Origin: Toxorhynchites rutilus septentrionalis | Taxonomy: Eukaryota > Arthropoda > Insecta > Diptera > Culicidae | Length of the DNA stretch: 64,000 nucleotides | Direction: 5' to 3' | Assembly: GCF_029784135.1 (NCBI RefSeq) | Contig: NC_073746.1 | Span: 241,732,307-241,796,306 of the forward strand | Shown here: positions 23,204-53,800 of the stretch, piece after piece | How the letters are laid out: the number at the start of each line of letters is the position of its first letter | How positions within the stretch are numbered: position 1 is the first letter of the stretch | Position numbers and translations under genes: made by a program | Notes under the pieces: model-generated | What the model was told of the DNA's origin: nothing | The model's database searches: none | What the model saw: only the letters and a program-made list of their open reading frames with translations

Positions 23204-25750
23204 ATAAAAATGGAGTGATGTCTGTCTGTCTGTCTGATTCTTATAGACTCGGAAACTACTGAACCGATCGACATGAAAATTGGTATGTAGGGGTTTTTGG
23301 GGCCGGGGAAGGTTTTCGTGATATTTTGATACCCCTCCCCCCTCTCTAAGGGGAGGCTGCCATACAAATGAAACACAAATTTCTTCATTACTCGGAAATT
23401 AACCAAGCAAACGAAACCAAAGTTGGCATGTGAAAGTTTTAGGGTGCAATAAATGTTTCTATGATGGTTAGACAGTCCTTCCCCCACTCAAAGGGGTGGG
23501 GGGGGGCCTGGCATACAAATGAAACACAAATTTCTGCATTACTCGAGAATTAATCAAGCAAATGAAACCAAATTTGACATGTGGAGGTTTTAGGATGCAA
23601 TAAATGTTTCTATGGTGATAAGATACTCCTTCCCCCTCTCTTAGAGGGGGCTGCCATACAAATGAAACACAATTTTTTGCATTACTCGGAAATTAATCAA
23701 TCAAACGAAACCAAAGTTGGCATGTGAAAGTTTTAGGGTGCAATAAATGTTTCTATGATGGTTAGACAGTCCTTCCCCCACTCAAAGGGGGGGCTGCCAT
23801 ACAAATGAAACACAAATTTCTGCATTACTCGAGAATTAATCAAGCAAATGAAACCAAATTTGGCATGTGGAGGTTTTAGGATGCAATAAATGTTTCTATG
23901 GTGTTAAGATACTCCTTCCCCCTCTCTTAGAGGGGGCTGCCGTACAAATAAAACACAAATTTCTGCATTACTCGAGAATTAATCAAGTAAATGGGCGGGA
24001 CGAAGTTTGCCGGATTAGCTAGTATATATTAAAAATGGATTTTTGTCTGTCTGTCTGTCTGTCTGATTCTTATGGACTCGGAAACTACCGAACCGATCGA
24101 CATGAAAATTGATATGTGGTGGTTTTTGTGGCCGGGGAAGGTTTTCATAATAGTTTGAGACCCTTCCCCCCTCTCTAAGGGGGGGCTGTCATACAAATGA
24201 AACACAAATTTCTACAGTACTCGAGAATTATTCAGGCAAATGAAACCAAATTAGGCATATTGAGGTTTTAGGATGCAATAAATGTTTCTATGGTGATAAG
24301 ATACTCCTTCCCCCTCTCTTAGAGGGGGCTGCCATACAAATGAAACACAATTTTTTGCATTACCCGAGAATTAATCAAGCAAATTAAACCAAATTTGGCA
24401 TGTGCAGGTTTTAGGGTGCAATAAATGATTCTATGGTGGTTAGATACTCCTCCCTCCTCTCTAAGGGGGGCTGCCATACAAATGAAACACAAATTTCTGC
24501 ATTACTCGAGAATTAATAAACAAATGAAACCAAATTTGGCATGTGCAGGTTTTAGGGTGCAATAAATGATTCTATGGTGGTTAGATACTCCTCCCTCCTC
24601 TCTAAGGGGGGCTGCCATACAAATGAAACACAAATTTCTGCATTACTCGAGAATTAATCAAGTAAATGGGCGGGACGAAGTTTGCCGGATTAGCTAGTAT
24701 ATATTAAAAATGGATTTTTGTCTGTCTGTCTGTCTGTCTGATTCTTATGGACTCGGAAACTACCGAACCGATCGACATGAAAATTGATATGTGGTGGTTT
24801 TTGTGGCCGGGGAAGGTTTTCATAATAGTTTGAGACCCTTCCCCCCTCTCTAAGGGGGGGCTGTCATACAAATGAAACACAAATTTCTACAGTACTCGAG
24901 AATTATTCAGGCAAATGAAACCAAATTAGGCATATTGAGGTTTTAGGGTGCAATAAATGTTTCTATGGGGGTTATACTCTCCACCTCCCTCTCTAAGGGG
25001 GGGGCTGCCATACAAATGAAACACAAATTTCTACATTACTCGAAAACTAATCAAGCACAATTTGGAATGTGAGGGTTTTTGGGTATGAGAAATGTTTCTA
25101 TAATGGTATGACACCCCTCCCTCCTCTGGCATGGAGAGGTGGTCCCATAAAAATATTACACATATTTCATCCAAAAATATTCCAACCAGACATGACAATT
25201 GAAAATTTTCGGAAACTCTGAAGGAAAAAGGGAAAATTCGGAAAATTAAATGTTCTACAATTACATAGTGACAAGTGCTGTTAGTCCATTTGATGTTTGC
25301 GCTAGCGAAATTGATCTTTGTTCGAAACTGGAAATGGATTTTAACGTGATGATACGCACTCCTATATCTTCTTCTATCTATACCAAAAAAAAAGGATCGC
25401 TGGATGTGTTGATTAGAGCAGAATTCGAGGAAGGAATTATTCGATCTAGGGCTGTCTTCATTCTATCATATTTTCTGTATAAAACATTTATTCTATGTAA
25501 AGGAGAAACATGTTATTTGCAAGTGGTTGAAAAATCTTGAACGAGAATTGTGTCTGAAAATAATTTGATATTATAATGATGAGTTTTGTTAGAAATACTA
25601 AGAATTTTAAAGTAAAAAGTAAATTTATCGGGGACGAATAGAAGATTGGACCCATGAACTTTCTCATAGTAAGAAAACGTGAATGTTTGAAGGTATTGAT
25701 TACAAAAAAAAACAAATTTTGGGCGGGACGAAGTTTGCCGGGTCAACTAG
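23198..25750 (+). mobile_element. Tandem array of non-autonomous Helitrons
   Basis: Three head-to-tail units end at 24022, 24697 and 25750, each with GGGCGGGACGAAGTTTGCCGG followed by CTAG and then T. This is the CTRR-type 3' end of insect Helitrons, which insert between A and T. Each unit starts TATATATAAAAATGG or TATATATTAAAAATGG then TCTGTCTGTCTG and GACTCGGAAACTAC. Inside are many roughly 140-bp repeats of the form CATACAAATGAAACACAAAT ... AAATGTTTCTATGG. Units 2 (675 bp) and 3 begin with about 260 bp that look almost identical. No Rep or helicase ORF is present. Confidence 0.82.
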
Positions 25751-44800: not shown

Positions 44801-47800
44801 TAAAGAAATGAACAAAAAAATGAATAGAAAAAAAACGAAGAAAATAATATTTTCAAAAATATAATTAAAAACATAACCCTATTCTGCAAGCTACGAGTGG
44901 ACTTTATATTGTGGAGAACGATTTGTGAACTCTTTGGCGTTCTTGGTTCTCAAACACGAACGAAAGAAAGGTTGGCCATCAAATTGACGACCGATCCAGT
45001 GCGCGTAGAGAAAGAATCGCGTAAAATAGACGAGTATAATGATCTCGGGAAGATGAAGTACGGAAAAGTAGCCAAGCAGTCAACCAGAACGGTAGAAGAG
45101 CTGCTTCTGCTTCTGAACAAAGGGGATCTACATGATCTACCATTAGCGCCATACAAATAGCTTACACCGTTTGAAGCAACGAAATTTTACTATAAACCAA
45201 AAGCAAATATGACAACTAAAACTTATCGAGATGTAACACATTGAGCAAGAAACACGATGACACATTTTCTGTTGTAGTTCCCTGTACCGTATTCATCACA
45301 CCTACCTGTTCATGGTTACGCATCGATTCCATGTCTTCCGGTGCTGCGAATATACAGCAATTGGTGCGAGGTTTCTCGCCATCTTGTGAGATGGATCCTC
45401 CTGGGACTGTTGATGGAATTAACAAAAGAAGAAATTAGTACGTTTTTAATGAGATATCTGAATTCAGGAGACTCACCAAGTAACCCGCCAGCAATTAGTA
45501 TGTCGAATAATACTTCTCCGTAGCGACGATAGTCGAGTTTGTTACCAGCACTGTCTAGAAACTTGGAAATTTGCTCTAAATCTTCTGCTGCTTCGAGACC
45601 TGCAATGACCGCGTCACGGAATCCCGTGGGATCATTCTTCTCTCTTTCATCTGTAATGGCGGTGAAGAAAACCCAATTAGTCAGACGATGATTCAATGCA
45701 TGATTCAAAAGGGGGTAGAAAACTGGGTGGACGTAAGACAATTCAATGAATGTCTTATGGCTTCATTGGGTGTTCTGCGGATGTTGTAATCACACTTGCG
45801 TAACAGCTCAGCGAGCGAAGCCCACGTGTTATTCGATCTAACACAGTTTTCGTTTCATTAGCATTGCTTGTAGCGCTGATTTGATTATTTAGAGAGGGTT
45901 TATTAATCCCCATCCTTCAGGGACAATGTTCGTGACTGTGAGACATTTGCTTCTACCATCTTTATCACATAATACGACTTCAATTTGATGTGAAGAAAAA
46001 CTTCTCTGCGTACGATGACGCAACTGACAACATATGCTGTGCTAAATAAACGCGTAAAAGTTCGTGCTGATATTGAATTTAATTATACATCAAACACGGA
46101 AACTTGCGCGTTAATTGCATTCACAATGGACTCATCAGCAACTGATAAGTTTATCTCTATCCTGACAATATCAGTCGCAGAAAGCGGATCCCTTCCAAAA
46201 TACGCGTAGTTTATCAATCGAAACAAGAACCTCAGTTGACGCTTCCGCACACACATTCATAATTGTTCGTAGTAATCCTAAGAATCTCGTGTTCATCTCT
46301 CTTTTAGCTCGGATCGCCTGGATGCTAGCGTAACCGGGCGGGTGGAGAGATGTTTTGCTCTAGCACTGTGTAAATAAAGACGGAAAGTCCCAGAAGAAAC
46401 GGGGCAACCCATCAGACTGGAAGTGCACCAACAACGGATGTGACGATCTCTGGATTGCACGAAGTGTGTATAGATATGTGTGTGTTTACACAACAAGTGT
46501 GTACTTTACATTATGACTGTACATCCAGCTATTCAGCCATTCCTGGAGGAAATTATCCAGAGAACGACGGGTGGCTGGTGCTGTTGTTTACTCTTAGCAT
46601 GGTGAAAACGAAAGGCCCCAGAAATCGCAGGACGCTTCGGTAGAATATGCTGTTTTTTATTCAATTGCATTCGAAGTAATAGATGATCTGAAATAAAGAT
46701 TTGAACACGTGCAGATGGTTCTCCACAACTGTACACGTGACATTGAACGTGTTAAGGAAACTAGTTTCCCCATATGCAATTAAAAATAACGTGATTTCGA
46801 AGTCATACGCTTCGCACGTTGTCGATATCAAGCGGTGTAACTACAATATTTGCTTTGTATGTCTCCACTACGAGTAACGGGTTTTGTTACGGACAGATGT
46901 TGTTTATGCGTAAAAGCAATAAAGTAGGAAATTCCGTAATAATAAGAGTAGATCATAGGTAAGGTCATATATATTATTGTTAGCTTAGGAAAGCGATGTA
47001 AGCGCTGCAAAAAAGAATAGGCTATAAAAAGCAAGACAAAAATATACGTTTTTAAAAACAAGACCTCCAAGCGAGGTATAGAAATGTTTAGAAAGGACCA
47101 ATGTAAGGCAATTAAAAGATGTAAGAGCTCAAGTGTTTTGTTAGGCTAGAAAACGCTTGTAGTTCGAAATTATTGCCGGTCATAAATTCAGAATGGACGA
47201 ATATTTAGATAGCGTCCGGTAAACAATTTAATGCATGCATCATTTAGGATGCATTTTTATTACCCTTTTCCATCCCTAGCTGCGCTCAGCCAGATACACC
47301 AGCAGGGTGTAATCAAATAAAAGGATGTTATTTTAGAGCGAAGGATGGAAAGGGGAAATCCAAGAATAAGATAGGCGCACCGACGAGGTGCTATAAACTT
47401 AAGGTATTTTCTTAGGGTAGTGCAGCCGTCTCAGACTGCACGTTACCATACGCTAGAAGAAGGGACAAGGAAGGTAGATGATCTAAACAAAACCGATATG
47501 TTATCGGTTTTCAAGAGAGAGAGAGGAGATGTTCCTCGTCATTCTTAGTTTAAGGAACCATGTATATATTGTGAAACTTTTGAATAAATTTTTTAGTATT
47601 GTAACAGAACTCACGCGAAAGCGTTAAAATTTTTCTTTCAATAGAGAAATTTTTCATGGTGGCTCCAGAGAGGAGCAAGTTTTTCCTTTTATTTAAGTAC
47701 AAAATGTGTTAATTTGCGAACTCTTCTCGGCAGTGGATGCCAGAGGTGATGTTCGTGAAATCTTCTCAGCAGTGAATGCGAGAAGTGTGAATTTGTGAAT

Positions 47801-50800
47801 TCTCAAAGGCAGTGGATGCCTAAAAAGTGCATTTCTTTCGTGAATTTTATCAAAAGGCAGTGGATGCCTAAAAAGTGTATTCGTTTCGCGAATTTTCCTA
47901 AGGCAGTGGATGCCTAAAGAGTTTATTATTTTCGCGAATTTTCCTAAGGCAGTGGATGCCTAAAGAGTGTATTATTTTCGCGAACTTTCCTAAGGCAGTG
48001 GATGCCTAAAGAGTGTATTATTTTCGCGAACTTTCCTAAGGCAGTGGATGCCTAAAGAGTGTATTATTTTCGCGAACTTTCCTAAGGCAGTGGATGCCTA
48101 AAGAGTGTATTATTTTCGCGAACTTTCCTAAGGCAGTGGATGCCTAAAGAGTGTATTCTTTTCGCGAACTTTCCTAAGGCAGTGGATGCCTAAAAAGTGT
48201 ATTCGTTTCGCGAATTTTCCTAAGGCAGTGGATGCCTAAAGAGTTTATTATTTTCGCGAATTTTCCTAAGGCAGTGGATGCCTAAAGAGTGTATTATTTT
48301 CGCGAACTTTCCTAAGGCAGTGGATGCCTAAAGAGTGTATTATTTTCGCGAACTTTCCTAAGGCAGTGGATGCCTAAAGAGTGTATTCTTTTCGCGAACT
48401 TTCCTAAGGCAGTGGATGCCTAAAGAGTGTATTCGTTTCGCGAACTTTACTAAAGCAGTGGATGCTATATACACACATAAATATATGTTAATTCAAGTAC
48501 CAGAAGGCAGTTATTATAAATATGACCAACTGCCGCAGCAGCACGTGGTCGTGGAGTTAGAAGCAAGAGGTAGCAGCAGTATCCTCGGCACAATCGGAGA
48601 GACCATCGCTAGAGATACCAGGAACTGTCAACCAGCGGAACCAGAAGCAAGCGGTGGCATTAGATGCAGCAGCACCAGCATTGGCACTATCAGAAGTGAC
48701 AAGAACAATCCGAGCCAGAAGGTTTGGACCACTCAAGAACCAGTCGGCACCAGCAGCAGCAGTAGTATCCCAGCACCAGATGAGTTAATCGAAAAACAGG
48801 TATAGAATTAATCTATATTAAGAATTATAGGGGTTACGATAGCAACCATGGGAGTTTTTAAAATAGGGGCCAAGAGAGCAAAGAAATGATAAAGGAATAA
48901 ATTCGTACGGTCAAGTGAGCCAACATTAAAATATAAACAATAAAATTAGTAGGAATATGGAAAACACATACAAGATGATTACCACTAAATACTTCACACG
49001 TAATGTGAAGGGTCACTGTCACCTATGTCACGAGTCTGATGAGGAACAGATGATTTATTGTTGCGAGTGTGAGCGATGGTTCCACTTGAGTTGCACTAAT
49101 CTAAAGCAAGCCCCTCTAACGGGTGATCGGTGGATCTGTGTCAAATGCACAGATCTAGAATATAATTATTCGAAGAAAGTGCGAATAAGTGACTTAATAG
49201 GAATACTCGCTACTAGCATATATCCTAGTGGGTGGGGAAATTATTATAAGGAGGATATGCCAACCAAGCCGCCTCCATTTAGGGCAATTAGTGAATTGCA
49301 TAGGCGAGTAAATGGCAATTCTGAATCTGAGTTTAGAAACTCAGAGGAATGCCATCAATTAAAAATGCCTCCTCCTTGGAATCCTGATCTAGTTGATTGC
49401 AGGAGGAAAGGTAATGATTCAGATGACAAAGTATTTGAATCATCTAAAGTAACCAGATTAATTGCACCTCCTCCGTGGAACCCTAAGTTGGCTAGGTATA
49501 TGAGGAGGAAAAATGACAATTCATCTGAGTCAGAAGATTCAGATGATGAAGACAAACTTGAAGTGATACAAGTTGAAATGAATGAAAAACTAGGAGATGT
49601 TAGTCCTCAGAGCGGTGAAGATGGCTGCTCATTCCCAGTGAGGAAAGAGCCATTTAAAACCATATCAGTCGCAAAACGCGAATCTGATTATGAGAATAGT
49701 TTGCCCGCAATAGGCAAAACGGGTATCATCACAGATGTATGGGCTGTGATAGAAGAAAATACGAAAACCTCCACAGATAGAGGAATTATGGCGGAAAAGA
49801 AAAAACCATGCGTGATGCATGAAGTCAGGGCGGATGAGATATCTGCAAATAAAGAAATAGCGGATTCCAATAATGGGAACGCTAAAAATTTTAAGATAGA
49901 AAAACTATCTATCAACCTTCAAGATCCAGAATGGGAAAGGCCAGCTACTGGATTAATTAAGAATTCTGTTGCAACAGTGATTGTTGAACAGAAAATAAAA
50001 TACCCAACTGAAAAACGGTTTGAAGAAATAGAACCACCTGTAGCAGTAGAGGAAGTAGTCCTCAGAAATAGAACAAAAATATTAGCAAAATTTTATTTGA
50101 AGACGAAAGCCTGGCGTAAAGGTTTTAAAAAATTCCTTAGAAGTGCAAAGTTCATCCCAAAAATTGGGAGCCAATGTAAAACCAAAAGTGTTATCATCAA
50201 GATGGATGATTCATCACAAGATGCTAACATACAATTTGAAAACTCAACAAATATAGAGATTTGTGTTATTGAGCCTCCGAGGAAGGTAGCGCCAGAAATA
50301 ACACCAAAGGAATTGTTTATAAATGAATCTTCATTTCTTCCAAGGAGAAATAATTCCAACAATAGAAAATCATATTCAGTCGATAATTATAGTATTGGAA
50401 ATCTCGATAAATACTGTACCCCAGATTACCAGTATCCTCGACGTCGTATCAAAAACGACTTCCACACTGTAACCACGAGTTACACTATTGTACCATCATT
50501 AACGAAATATGATGAAGAATATTCTATTTTGCAAAATTTGTGACATGTTGACAATATTTAGTCATAGGGCGACACATATAAAATAATGCGATCGTTATAG
50601 TTAAAAGCCATAGATTCGTATAAAATAGGACTACTTATAATTGAAAATTATGGCTCTGAATATCTTTCAAATCTTTAGAAGACTGTTTCCTAAGTATTAG
50701 GGGCGTCTATTTACCTGTATGACAACGAGAGCAATACATCTTGAGTTAGCGCAAGATATGAGTTCGGATTCTTTCATTATATGTTTCCGCAATTTGCAAA

Positions 50801-53800
50801 ATTATGGCCCAGATAGGGAAATTATTACCGTAGATCAAAACTATAAACTCTCTAATATAGAGGTTGGAAAGTTTGTTTTTCAACGTTTGTAATATGTTGA
50901 TATTCTTTATATCTATATAAAGTATAGAAAATCTTAAGCTTGATAAAATATGAAGACGAAAATCTTAAAATGGAAATTTAACAAAACTGTTAACTGAATT
51001 AATTAGAAAAATATTTTTAGGCAAATGATTTGCTTGAAGTTCAGCAAGTGAGCTGCTGAAAGACTTTAATACAATTTAAGATACAATTGTTTCGTTATAA
51101 AATGGACCCAAGAAAATGATAACTTGTAAGGTCCAAAATATCAATTAGAGCAAAAATGAAGAGACTGTCCGGTCAAGCGTCAAGCATTTGGAATGCTCAA
51201 AACATTACTCTGATGGGTTAAAAGTATAGCAAGTATTCTGCTGAAAAATATACATTGACCACTAAAGAAAAAATTATGGCGCAGCAAGTGATATGCTGAA
51301 GCCAGTTTCTATACGAATGATTGGCTCAAAGCTCAGTAAGTGAATTGCTGAAAGGAGCGATATCAACTGTGAATTAGTTGATGGTAGAAAAAATTAAAAA
51401 TACAGCTATGAAGAATTTGGAAGACTGATTTGTTAGCAAGTGGATTGCTTAACCTTCAGCAAGTGATTTGCTGAAGGGGTCAAAATCAAAAGTTTCTTTT
51501 TTAAGCAAGTGAATTGCTTAAAACTCAGCAAGTGGATTGCTGAGAGTAACAACATCACCAGTAAGTCGGTTGATGAAATACAGCATGTGAGATGCTGAAG
51601 AAAGATTTTTTGAACAAGTGGTTTGCGAAGCTCAGCATGTGAGTTGCTGAGAATATGATCAATGCATTATTCAAATGACTATTAAAAGCATAGCTTCCAG
51701 TCTTAACTGAGGGAAAGATTGGAGATGGTTAACTATACAATGTAGATGACATTATGAGTTATTTGAATACAAGTAACAGGAAAAAAAAAATTGAATGAAA
51801 TTTTTAAATGTATTTCAAAGTATATCACACTATGAGAGCATGAGTTGCATGCATAAAGAAAACGACTTGAAAAAGTTTATGTGAGCTACGATCAGTCGTA
51901 TTATATGATTAGTCGGAACAGTTACATGAGAACTGAGGCTTTAAAATTGGATTTAGTATTCAGAGACAAACTTTAATGTTAATACTTGCTGAAGGAACGG
52001 TAATTGTACTACCAAAAGATTAGCACATTGACTAATTATTTAAAAAGGATGTTTTGAGAAAAACAATATCAGCAATGTAACAAGACAACTAGCAAAAGGA
52101 TGTTGGATTCAAGATTCCTTTCTTGGCAACGAGATAACTTAGCATTAAAATGGAACGTTGTGTTTGATGAAAGAAAATCTTATAAGAGAAAAGAAAATGT
52201 AATTTGCATTTCCTTTAATGGAAAATATTATATAACACTGAATCTCAATGCATAATTTTCCAAAAAGAAACTTGAAGTTAGTTTATATAATTAACGGTTA
52301 TATCAAATTACTAGTGAGAGCAATTATTCGAAATTTACGAATGTTTACGATTAGTTTGCATAACTGTATGCAGAATAAAAATGAAACAAAAAATACTATT
52401 ATTAATAAAACAAATAATAAGTTATGTTTTCTAGTATAAACTTGTAAGTGTAAGTGTAAGGAAAAGATAATAATGTGAGTGAAATCAAATCACACAATAA
52501 AACACAGAATAAAGCGATACAGCTACAGATGGAAATATGTTCAAGCAAATGTATATGATTTAGAACATGTAGAACGACTATCAAAAATTTAAATTAAAAT
52601 GTAGAAAAAAAATGATAATACTGAAGAATTTGGTAAATCTATGGAGTAGATTTACGGGGTCCGGAATGTTACGGACAGATGTTGTTTATGCGTAAAAGCA
52701 ATAAAGTAGGAAATTCCGTAATAATAAGAGTAGATCATAGGTAAGGTCATATATATTATTGTTAGCTTAGGAAAGCGATGTAAGCGCTGCAAAAAAGAAT
52801 AGGCTATAAAAAGCAAGACAAAAATATACGTTTTTAAAAACAAGACCTCCAAGCGAGGTATAGAAATGTTTAGAAAGGACCAATGTAAGGCAATTAAAAG
52901 ATGTAAGAGCTCAAGTGTTTTGTTAGGCTAGAAAACGCTTGTAGTTCGAAATTATTGCCGGTCATAAATTCAGAATGGACGAATATTTAGATAGCGTCCG
53001 GTAAACAATTTAATGCATGCATCATTTAGGATGCATTTTTATTACCCTTTTCCATCCCTAGCTGCGCTCAGCCAGATACACCAGCAGGGTGTAATCAAAT
53101 AAAAGGATGTTATTTTAGAGCGAAGGATGGAAAGGGGAAATCCAAGAATAAGATAGGCGCACCGACGAGGTGCTATAAACTTAAGGTATTTTCTTAGGGT
53201 AGTGCAGCCGTCTCAGACTGCACGTTACCATACGCTAGAAGAAGGGACAAGGAAGGTAGATGATCTAAACAAAACCGATATGTTATCGGTTTTCAAGAGA
53301 GAGAGAGGAGATGTTCCTCGTCATTCTTAGTTTAAGGAACCATGTATATATTGTGAAACTTTTGAATAAATTTTTTAGTATTGTAACAGAACTCACGCGA
53401 AAGCGTTAAAATTTTTCTTTCAATAGAGAAATTTTTCAGGTTTCCTTTCCGAAAAAGTAAAAAAGTTGAGCTCTAGAGTTATGAAGCAAGCGAAAAATCG
53501 GGTTTGGAGATAGAGATATGTCTAGCGATAAAGCATTGTTTGCCTCCACGGAGTATCAAGGAAGAAACAGTATAGAAAGCTTCGGTCGCTAAGTTCGTTG
53601 TACCATAAGTTTCAGTACTACTACAGATTGAATTTGCCGTAGCATACTAGTCGTCATGGATCACGCGTTAATACTTACACCCCACCGTGTAAAGCTAATA
53701 ATTTAAAAATAAAAAAAACATGAACGCAAAGCGGAACAAAACAAACAACATCAATGACGTTGTCGTTTCAAGTATTTTTGACGCCGTGGCGCGATCAAGC

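What the first reader, a model, noticed from the sequence alone, without database searches (positions are those of the whole stretch)
47726..51651. Two arrays of covarying stem-loops with a fixed GTGRN loop
Before and after the PHD ORF, nearly 30 hairpins share a pentaloop of type GTGGA/GTGAA while stem bases change in pairs: AGGCA/TGCCT, AGCA/TGCT, CTTCTCAGCA/TGCGAGAAG, CCTTCAGCAA/TTGCTGAAGG, TTTTAAGCAA/TTGCTTAAAA, CAGCAT/ATGCTG. Compensating change with a constant loop points to selection on RNA structure, for example packaging, dimerisation or binding by the element's own protein. The compensation is seen directly; the function is inference.
Basis: partly seen in the sequence, partly recalled or inferred. 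Interest (0 to 1): 0.88.

Follow-up and report, generated by a model that had tools for sequence, protein, structure and literature searches.

The report
Hairpin arrays shared by mosquito retroelements
A mosquito jumping element and the full-length element that probably supplies its missing proteins both carry rows of small RNA hairpins with nearly the same five-letter tip but different, still-matching stems, which looks like a handle that marks their RNA for packing into particles.

Summary
The window (Toxorhynchites rutilus) contains a complete 6,554-bp LTR element without gag-pol, with identical 772-bp LTRs and a 5-bp target duplication. 27 GTGRN hairpins lie in two arrays, 17 behind the primer-binding site and 10 downstream of the PHD ORF; four more 3' units have diverged loops. 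All are on the sense strand. In the 3' region 8 GTG-loop hairpins occur; the largest class of any one loop type in 2000 shuffles is 3.

Relatives in the same genome strengthen it. Elements whose LTR is 99-100% identical over its last ~596 columns, with the same PBS, encode an open PHD-Gag-RT-IN frame (BEL/Pao); their leader, ~74% alike where alignable, has its own GTGGA hairpins. A third family (PHD 61-68% aa) has GTGAT/GTGAC hairpins. Of all GTGRN pentamers in five such regions 44 of 78 sit on a stem, against 4 of 766 elsewhere in the window. Across families all six stem pairs change on both sides.

Best reading: a multivalent RNA signal recognised by a protein shared by helper and parasite, most likely for packaging. 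RNA-structure selection is well supported; packaging and the binding protein are inferred. Thirty other BEL gag loci showed no array.

The parts
46880..46884 (.). target-site duplication GGTTT, left copy
46885..47656 (+). 5' LTR (TG...CA), identical to the 3' LTR
   Evidence: 772 bp, 100%
47657..47676 (+). primer-binding-site region TGGTGGCTCC..., with a GCTCC[AGAGA]GGAGC hairpin; shared with the autonomous class and with three of six third-family loci; tRNA not identified
47726..48470 (+). 5' hairpin array: 17 hairpins with GTGGA (16) or GTGAA (1) loops; first two and last units diverged, 14 inner units AGGCA[GTGGA]TGCCT at 46-48 bp steps
48416..48805 (+). 129-aa ORF overlapping the array end; no Pfam family above cut-off
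48957..50543 (+). PHD-finger ORF (528 aa); open in 9 of 10 further copies read; dN/dS 0.20-0.30 against the third family over the N-terminal part
50701..50892 (+). remnant of the BEL/Pao integrase core; first 33 aa 94% identical to the autonomous element
51013..51655 (+). 3' hairpin array: 10 GTGRN hairpins (51048, 51288, 51340, 51440, 51463, 51509, 51532, 51587, 51618, 51639) plus 4 with diverged loops (51025, 51188, 51233, 51565), 12 of 14 in pairs
52633..52655 (+). hairpin GTAAATCTA[TGGAG]TAGATTTAC just before the polypurine tract; same stem in the pieces read from all three families
52667..53438 (+). 3' LTR
53439..53443 (.). target-site duplication GGTTT, right copy

Best explanation
The arrays are a multivalent cis-acting RNA signal of a BEL/Pao lineage. 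Each unit is a short stem of free sequence that presents one loop, GUGGA or GUGAN, on the genomic RNA. The autonomous element (PHD-Gag-RT-IN) carries 6-7 such hairpins between the primer-binding site and gag. The two non-autonomous families lost gag-pol but kept LTR ends, primer-binding site, a PHD protein and the hairpins, and have them in the 3' part too; the window family has enlarged its arrays most. Most likely the loops are bound by a protein of the helper, Gag with its CCHC knuckles, so that many weak sites together draw the parasite RNA into the helper's particles. Shown: the hairpins, their strand, the excess of stemmed GTGRN loops, covariation across three families, the gag-pol-coding partner, near-identical LTR parts over different leaders. 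Inferred: co-packaging, the protein that binds, and that its purpose is packaging.
For: Every GTGRN pentamer counted, paired or not: on a stem in 16 of 23 (window leader), 8 of 11 (window 3'), 6 of 25 (autonomous leader), 9 of 12 (third-family leader), 5 of 7 (third-family 3'), together 44 of 78; rest of the window 3 of 405 sense and 1 of 361 antisense; antisense of the five regions 0 of 6. GTG-loop hairpins: 6 of 16 in the autonomous leader, 9 of 14 in the third-family leader, maximum 2 in 1000 shuffles of each; minus strands 0. Alignment of 21 hairpins (20 distinct) from three families: 6 of 6 pairs change on both sides, 29 double-change cells, 86.7% of cells paired; covariation score .592 against .170 in shuffles, 0 of 500 reach it; slid controls .219 or less (rows were chosen for GTGRN loop and pairing, see full report). 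Partner: frames open for 1000+1000 aa with PHD (cut by the piece, below cut-off), DUF1759, RVT_1, Peptidase_A17, Integrase_H2C2, DUF5641; integrase peptide 94% over 33 aa to the window's remnant. Hairpins in its leader, none in the coding or 3' pieces read. LTR: about 596 of 772 columns 99.2% (window) and 100% (L049, L050, L054, L055) identical to the autonomous L128, although leaders are about 74% alike where alignable. Homologous 3' arrays of window and third family: stems 82%, spacers 68% identical (Fisher p = .0007). Inner 5' hairpin 15-mer identical in 93 of 93 units while spacers vary. CCHC motifs in the DUF1759 frame of 28 of 30 other BEL loci, and by eye in the autonomous frame.
Against: No binding or packaging data. 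30 BEL gag loci (the best of 3885 candidates, several near-identical, 1.5 kb upstream read) show no such array, one isolated hairpin apart, so it is not a general BEL packaging signal. Homologous 3' hairpins of the window and third family show 0 double-sided compensations, 5 one-sided and 9 broken pairs among 64 aligned pairs, 29 more gapped, and loops are only 75% identical (GTG letters 82%), below the stems. One third-family copy (L146/L157) has only 3 leader and 5 3' hairpins, so satellites do not always enlarge the array. Folding the whole 3' array gives low probability to several hairpins because similar arms can cross-pair. The 3' array is absent from the autonomous 3' regions read, which a pure packaging model does not explain. 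In HIV-1, replacing the GGAG loop did not much affect packaging (PMC7599994 passage). LTR identity could also come from gene conversion.
Confidence: 0.58

Rival explanations
1. The hairpins are bound by the PHD protein itself: the PHD part of the autonomous Gag and the separate PHD ORF of the non-autonomous elements. The parasite's own protein would coat its RNA and act as adaptor to the helper.
For: A PHD protein is the only ORF over 130 aa in the window element, the third family keeps its homologue, dN/dS is 0.20-0.30 between the two over 72-96 codons; a strongly basic stretch lies near residues 361-420.
Against: PHD fingers are best known as histone-tail readers (recalled; the solved relatives listed are mostly chromatin proteins). 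Between window subfamilies changes are 7 nonsynonymous to 1 synonymous against 3.9 expected, no sign of constraint. No binding data.
Confidence: 0.2
2. The array binds a host RNA-binding protein and serves export, stability or translation of the unspliced RNA, like retroviral transport elements.
For: Arrays in the 5' leader and, in two families, the 3' part, positions usual for such elements (recalled); multiple copies would add strength.
Against: No Rfam family matches at gathering threshold in the window; not seen in 30 other BEL loci that need the same host steps; no host protein with this loop preference is known to me.
Confidence: 0.2
3. RNA dimerisation: loops kiss between two genomic RNAs.
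For: Hairpin pairs with one constant loop recall the GACG hairpin pair of gammaretroviruses (PMC7599994 reference title; PMC516450 passages).
Against: GUGGA and GUGAN hold no self-complementary dinucleotide, so loop-loop Watson-Crick kissing between like loops is not expected; the stems could still form extended duplexes.
Confidence: 0.07
4. A DNA-level element (insulator or enhancer repeats, as in gypsy) or mere slippage of a palindrome.
For: Tandem repeats in the UTRs of insect LTR elements can be regulatory DNA (PMC3286476 section 14); 5' copy number varies 11-17 in 9 loci.
Against: Stem letters change in pairs while GTGRN loops on stems are found on the sense strand only, in three families; a DNA-binding site would fix the arms instead.
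Confidence: 0.05

Closest known systems
Non-autonomous LTR elements with tandem repeats in Culex quinquefasciatus (Marsano et al. 2012, PMC3286476)
   Same: Mosquito, LTRs, PBS, PPT, mostly 5-bp (some 4-bp or undetermined) target duplications, tandem repeats between LTRs, no gag-pol; one family (cqUNK_43) even has a 46-bp period (section 14 with Table 2 read).
   Different: Those are said to lack coding sequence and a relatable master element; the words hairpin and palindrom- do not occur in the main text. Here a PHD ORF and an autonomous partner exist and the repeats are covarying hairpins.
GACG hairpin pair of gammaretroviral leaders
   Same: Hairpins with one constant short loop, linked to packaging and dimerisation (PMC516450 passages; Konings 1992 title only).
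   Different: GUGGA/GUGAN pentaloops, many units per element, unrelated element, loop not self-complementary.
HIV-1 nucleocapsid binding to GGAG and GGUG loops
   Same: G-rich loops on leader hairpins bound through exposed guanosines by CCHC knuckles (PMC7599994 passages); the BEL Gag frames have CCHC motifs.
   Different: Tetraloops, single copies, loop replacement there had little effect on packaging; no test of binding here.
Multiple dispersed packaging signals of ssRNA viruses (MS2, STNV, HBV)
   Same: Many stem-loops, a shared loop motif, coat-protein binding (search listing with abstract starts only).
   Different: There dispersed through the genome; here clustered arrays in untranslated parts of a retroelement.
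GNRNA pentaloops (coronavirus s2m, lambda boxB)
   Same: GUGGA fits GNRNA, which folds with a sheared G-A pair and one extruded base (PMC10449227 passages). GUGAN can form GUGA plus one extruded base.
   Different: GUGAU, GUGAG, GUGAC do not fit GNRNA strictly; the fold is a guess.

Membership tests
LTR retroelement, BEL/Pao | two LTRs with TG...CA and 5-bp target duplication | tested here: met
LTR retroelement, BEL/Pao | Pao-type pol (Peptidase_A17, DUF1759 Gag, DUF5641) in the element or its LTR-sharing partner | tested here: met
   partner pieces L149, L150; window itself keeps only a 63-aa integrase remnant that matches 20 of 20 BEL loci at E 1e-8 to 2e-5 (no non-BEL control) but no Pfam family
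Non-autonomous satellite (LARD-like) | no gag-pol, LTR and PBS shared with an autonomous element | tested here: met
   LTR shared over about 596 of 772 columns, U3 start differs
Non-autonomous satellite (LARD-like) | mobilised in trans | not testable with these tools
   young copies (identical LTRs; hairpin pair exact in 76 places) make it likely
Retroviral-type packaging signal | located between PBS and gag of the autonomous RNA | tested here: met
Retroviral-type packaging signal | conserved RNA structure | tested here: met
   no tree-aware test
Retroviral-type packaging signal | binds Gag/NC and is needed for packaging | not testable with these tools
   bench work
GACG hairpin pair motif | GACG loops | tested here: not met
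   loops are GTGRN
Known RNA family (Rfam 15) | match at gathering score | tested here: not met
   0 of 4227 families in the window
GNRNA/boxB-like pentaloop | last loop base A | tested here: inconclusive
   met by the GTGGA hairpins, not by most GTGAN loops

The most novel reading that the evidence does not exclude
This is the first recognisable packaging signal of BEL/Pao elements: a natural counterpart of engineered hairpin arrays, in which one loop on interchangeable stems is read by the PHD-Gag of the autonomous element. Satellites compete for the particle; the window family does so by multiplying the sites (about 30 against 6-7 in the helper), while satellites keep a PHD protein under selection as adaptor.
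Probability: 0.3. Interest if true: 0.87.

Novelty: new variant of a known kind. Interest (0 to 1): 0.74.

Why it matters
A search for papers holding both 'Bel-Pao' (this spelling) and 'packaging signal' found 0 in the held library, so how BEL/Pao RNAs are selected seems open there. Here loop, stems, helper and two satellite families lie in one genome, so the question can be tested with simple binding and packaging assays. If right, it shows a satellite multiplying a helper's recognition hairpin, and offers a new orthogonal RNA tag.

Tried and rejected
Patterns for the hairpins in viral contigs: 0, 0 and 47 stretches with one match each, never an array; genome contigs double-hairpin pattern: 0. 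PHD ORF: 1 homologue at E 0.001 (P0001, same species, 98% over 66% of the query), none for residues 1-160, none in viral contigs. Minus-strand RNA of the 3' array folds even better relative to 20 shuffles (z -6.4 against -4.5; 5' array z -2.5), so folding energy does not decide the strand; loop orientation does. Smaug-type CNGGN loops were considered and rejected: base 1 is G, not C (recalled rule). Other BEL gag loci as a source of the array: 1 isolated hairpin in 30. ARAGORN found no tRNA in the window to name the PBS. Structure prediction of the PHD ORF was not run: only one homologue.

A test that gave little: of the 7 differences in the 3' array between the window and copies L060-L065, 6 lie outside the listed hairpins (p about .05); position 51371, counted as outside, lies in a further GTGAATT seven-base loop that I did not list as a unit, so it may be 5 of 7. 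The three changes private to L058, to L061 and L062, and to L063 all fell inside hairpins. Model R1: two of its 17 training rows (51015, 51430) were not found on the sense strand.

Rows dropped: A1 holds all 14 3' units. A2 leaves out the bulged 47772, 51565, 51618 and 11 repeated inner 5' units. A3 keeps only GTGRN rows (drops 51025, 51188, 51233, 51565), leaves out the bulged units of window and autonomous leader and repeated units, and takes one locus each of the autonomous and third families; two of its rows are identical and were counted once.
Full report
WHERE IT LIES. The window is G000:C3:241732307-241796306 of a 902.6-Mb genome. The only homologue of the PHD ORF found at E 0.001 is a Toxorhynchites rutilus septentrionalis protein, 98% identical over 66% of the query, on a contig of 333,097,027 bases, the same length as contig C3. 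The finding sits inside one complete LTR element: LTRs 46885-47656 and 52667-53438, 772 bp and 100% identical, target duplication GGTTT, ends TG...CA. Between them lie a 129-aa ORF, a 528-aa PHD ORF (Pfam PHD 6.3e-07) and a 63-aa integrase remnant, but no gag-pol.

THE HAIRPINS. Behind the primer-binding site are 17 hairpins, 14 of them copies of one 46-48-bp unit with AGGCA[GTGGA]TGCCT. After the PHD ORF are 10 GTGRN hairpins and four with diverged loops, 12 of the 14 in pairs. Three of the ten have a mismatch next to the loop and 51618 has only three pairs. Two more GTGAT hairpins with 5-bp stems lie in the PHD ORF. Seven spacers of the 3' array show no clear relation to each other (28 of 300 shuffles score as high). 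Chance does not explain the arrays: 8 GTG-loop hairpins against a largest class of 3 in 2000 shuffles; the minus strand has none of 10; the rest of the window has 1 GTGRN hairpin among 195 on the plus strand. A covariance model built from 17 of them finds 25 sense-strand hits, all in the element (24 at E below .01, the last at .011), besides three antisense mirror hits; outside the element only two weak hits, E .17 and 1.9. Many of the 25 match by construction, and two training rows are missed.

COVARIATION INSIDE THE WINDOW. For the 14 3' units 83% of cells pair against 77% in shuffles (2 of 500 reach it). Adding five 5' rows to twelve 3' rows gives 92.9% against 71.4%, 0 of 500. This is real but rests on few events, since most 5' units are recent copies.

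COPIES. The hairpin pair 51499-51544 occurs exactly in 76 places and once with two changes, none with one or three; the reversed-pattern control is 0. In 10 fetched copies the 3' array differs from the window by 0-8 changes. The 5' array has 11-17 units in 9 loci; the inner hairpin 15-mer is identical in 93 of 93 units while the spacers have 11 forms. The PHD frame is open in 9 of 10 further copies (L116 to L125).

THE PARTNER. The LTR-end plus PBS junction occurs in 181 places, more than twice the count of the 3' pair. Of the eight loci returned, L126, L129 and L130 are of the window's kind. L127, L128 and L131-L133 share the LTR at 98.5-99% over its last 597 columns, but their leader aligns only in part, at about 74%. 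Pieces of one such copy read as open frames of 1000 + 1000 aa with a partial PHD finger (below cut-off, cut by the piece), DUF1759, RVT_1, Peptidase_A17, Integrase_H2C2 and DUF5641: a BEL/Pao element. Its integrase has 94% identity over 33 aa to the window's remnant. Its leader carries 6-7 GGCA[GTGGA]TGCC hairpins plus bulged ones (by eye). None is found in the coding pieces L149 and L150 or in the 3' pieces of three copies. The same leader also repeats an AGTCT-loop hairpin four times.

THE THIRD FAMILY. Six extra matches to AAGCAAGTGRNTTGCTT, against 0 + 2 for the control, led to L143-L148: PBS start matched in three of the six (L143, L144, L146), LTR tail 92-94% over 52 bp in four (L143, L144, L146, L148), PHD start 61-68% aa in five. 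Their leader stretches have 3-15 hairpins with new stems: GGCA[GTGAT]TGCC, TTGACA[GTGAT]TGTCAA, CGGCA[GTGAC]TGCCG, AAAGCAA[GTGAT]TTGCTTT; none on the minus strand. Downstream of the ORF of the L146 copy, L157 has a 3' array 71.6% alike to the window's over 640 bp, with five GTGAN hairpins. That copy has only 3 leader hairpins.

STEMS UNDER GTGRN LOOPS, COUNTED WITHOUT CHOOSING. Every GTGRN pentamer in five regions was tested for a stem: 16 of 23, 8 of 11, 6 of 25, 9 of 12 and 5 of 7, together 44 of 78; antisense 0 of 6. The window outside the element gives 3 of 405 and 1 of 361, the element's coding part 2 of 21. In shuffles of the autonomous and third-family leaders GTG loops reach 2 at most, against 6 and 9.

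COVARIATION ACROSS FAMILIES. With 21 rows (20 distinct) all six pairs change on both sides; 29 double-change cells against 12.3; score .592 against .170; no shuffle of 500 reaches it, and sliding the partners gives .219 or less. Two cautions: rows were picked for a GTGRN loop and largely for pairing, so loop constancy and part of the pairing in A3 are by choice; and relatedness is not removed by the shuffles. Homologous 3' arrays of the window and L157 show stems 82% and spacers 68% identical (Fisher p .0007). Against the reading, the same comparison has 0 double-sided, 5 one-sided and 9 broken pairs of 64, 29 gapped, and loops at 75% (GTG letters 82%). On the other hand the diverged window loop ATGAT at 51025 reads GTGAT in L157. 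Stemmed loops listed read GTGGA or GTGAN apart from two unrelated-looking ones (GTGTT, GTGTG); where base 4 is G, base 5 was A. The exception is 51618 (GTGGT), whose stem is broken. This would let these loops form a GUGA fold with one base flipped out: a guess.

MECHANISM. Position between PBS and gag in the autonomous element, kept in satellites that have lost Gag and multiplied in the window family, is what a packaging signal used in trans would show. About 596 LTR columns are 100% identical between the autonomous L128 and satellites L049, L050, L054 and L055, while the window copy has another U3 start (55% over 76 aligned positions) joined to a 99.2% identical remainder. Such mosaics are expected if both RNAs sit in one particle and reverse transcription switches template; gene conversion could do the same. 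CCHC motifs lie in the Gag frame of 28 of 30 other BEL loci and, by eye, in the autonomous frame; HIV-1 nucleocapsid reads guanosines in GGAG and GGUG loops, though swapping the GGAG loop had little effect on packaging (PMC7599994, passages). The PHD protein is conserved between satellites at dN/dS .20-.30, so it may be the binder or adaptor instead.

PLACE AMONG KNOWN THINGS. Mosquito LTR elements with tandem repeats and no gag-pol are known (PMC3286476, section 14 read, passages elsewhere), without the words hairpin or palindrome and without a master element. Constant-loop hairpins are known from gammaretroviruses (PMC516450, passages). What seems new is the combination: one loop, free stems, 8 to 31 units in the two satellite copies whose both ends were read, and 6-7 in the helper leaders. 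30 other BEL gag loci have no array, one isolated hairpin apart, so it looks lineage-specific. On checking I lowered the main confidence slightly (from .60 to .58) because of the loop divergence and the small array of L146.

Noticed in passing
52633-52655; L151 861; L154 1267; L157 1021: A hairpin with stem GTAAATCTA/TAGATTTAC and a varying loop (TGGAG, TGTAG, TGAGG) sits just before the polypurine tract in the pieces read from all three families; possibly a second cis-acting structure.
   Followed up: partly
48957-50543 and L145, L147, L148: The PHD ORF of non-autonomous elements is conserved between families at dN/dS about 0.2-0.3 over the N-terminal 72-96 codons, unusual for elements without gag-pol.
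   Followed up: partly
46885-47060 versus L128, L050: The window copy, L051 and L126 have a different U3 start from the other 13 LTRs read (L129 had no LTR start), joined to a nearly identical remainder: LTR mosaicism.
   Followed up: partly
49812 and 49977: Two GTGAT hairpins with 5-bp stems inside the PHD ORF, perhaps chance: 2 of 21 GTGRN pentamers in 48481-50999 are stemmed.
   Followed up: no
L150 after about residue 700: The autonomous frame runs on past the integrase into a stretch with an RSKR-like site and hydrophobic segment that looks envelope-like by eye; no Pfam family at E 0.01.
   Followed up: no
G000: BEL/Pao Gag (DUF1759) gives 3885 first-look candidates in this mosquito genome, 150 scored.
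   Followed up: no
23328-24668: Tandem arrays of a 141-143/286-bp unit; unrelated to the element.
   Followed up: no
27170: A single TATTTCG[GTGGA]CGAAATA hairpin outside the element; the only GTGRN pentaloop elsewhere in the window with a stem of 5 or more, probably chance.
   Followed up: no
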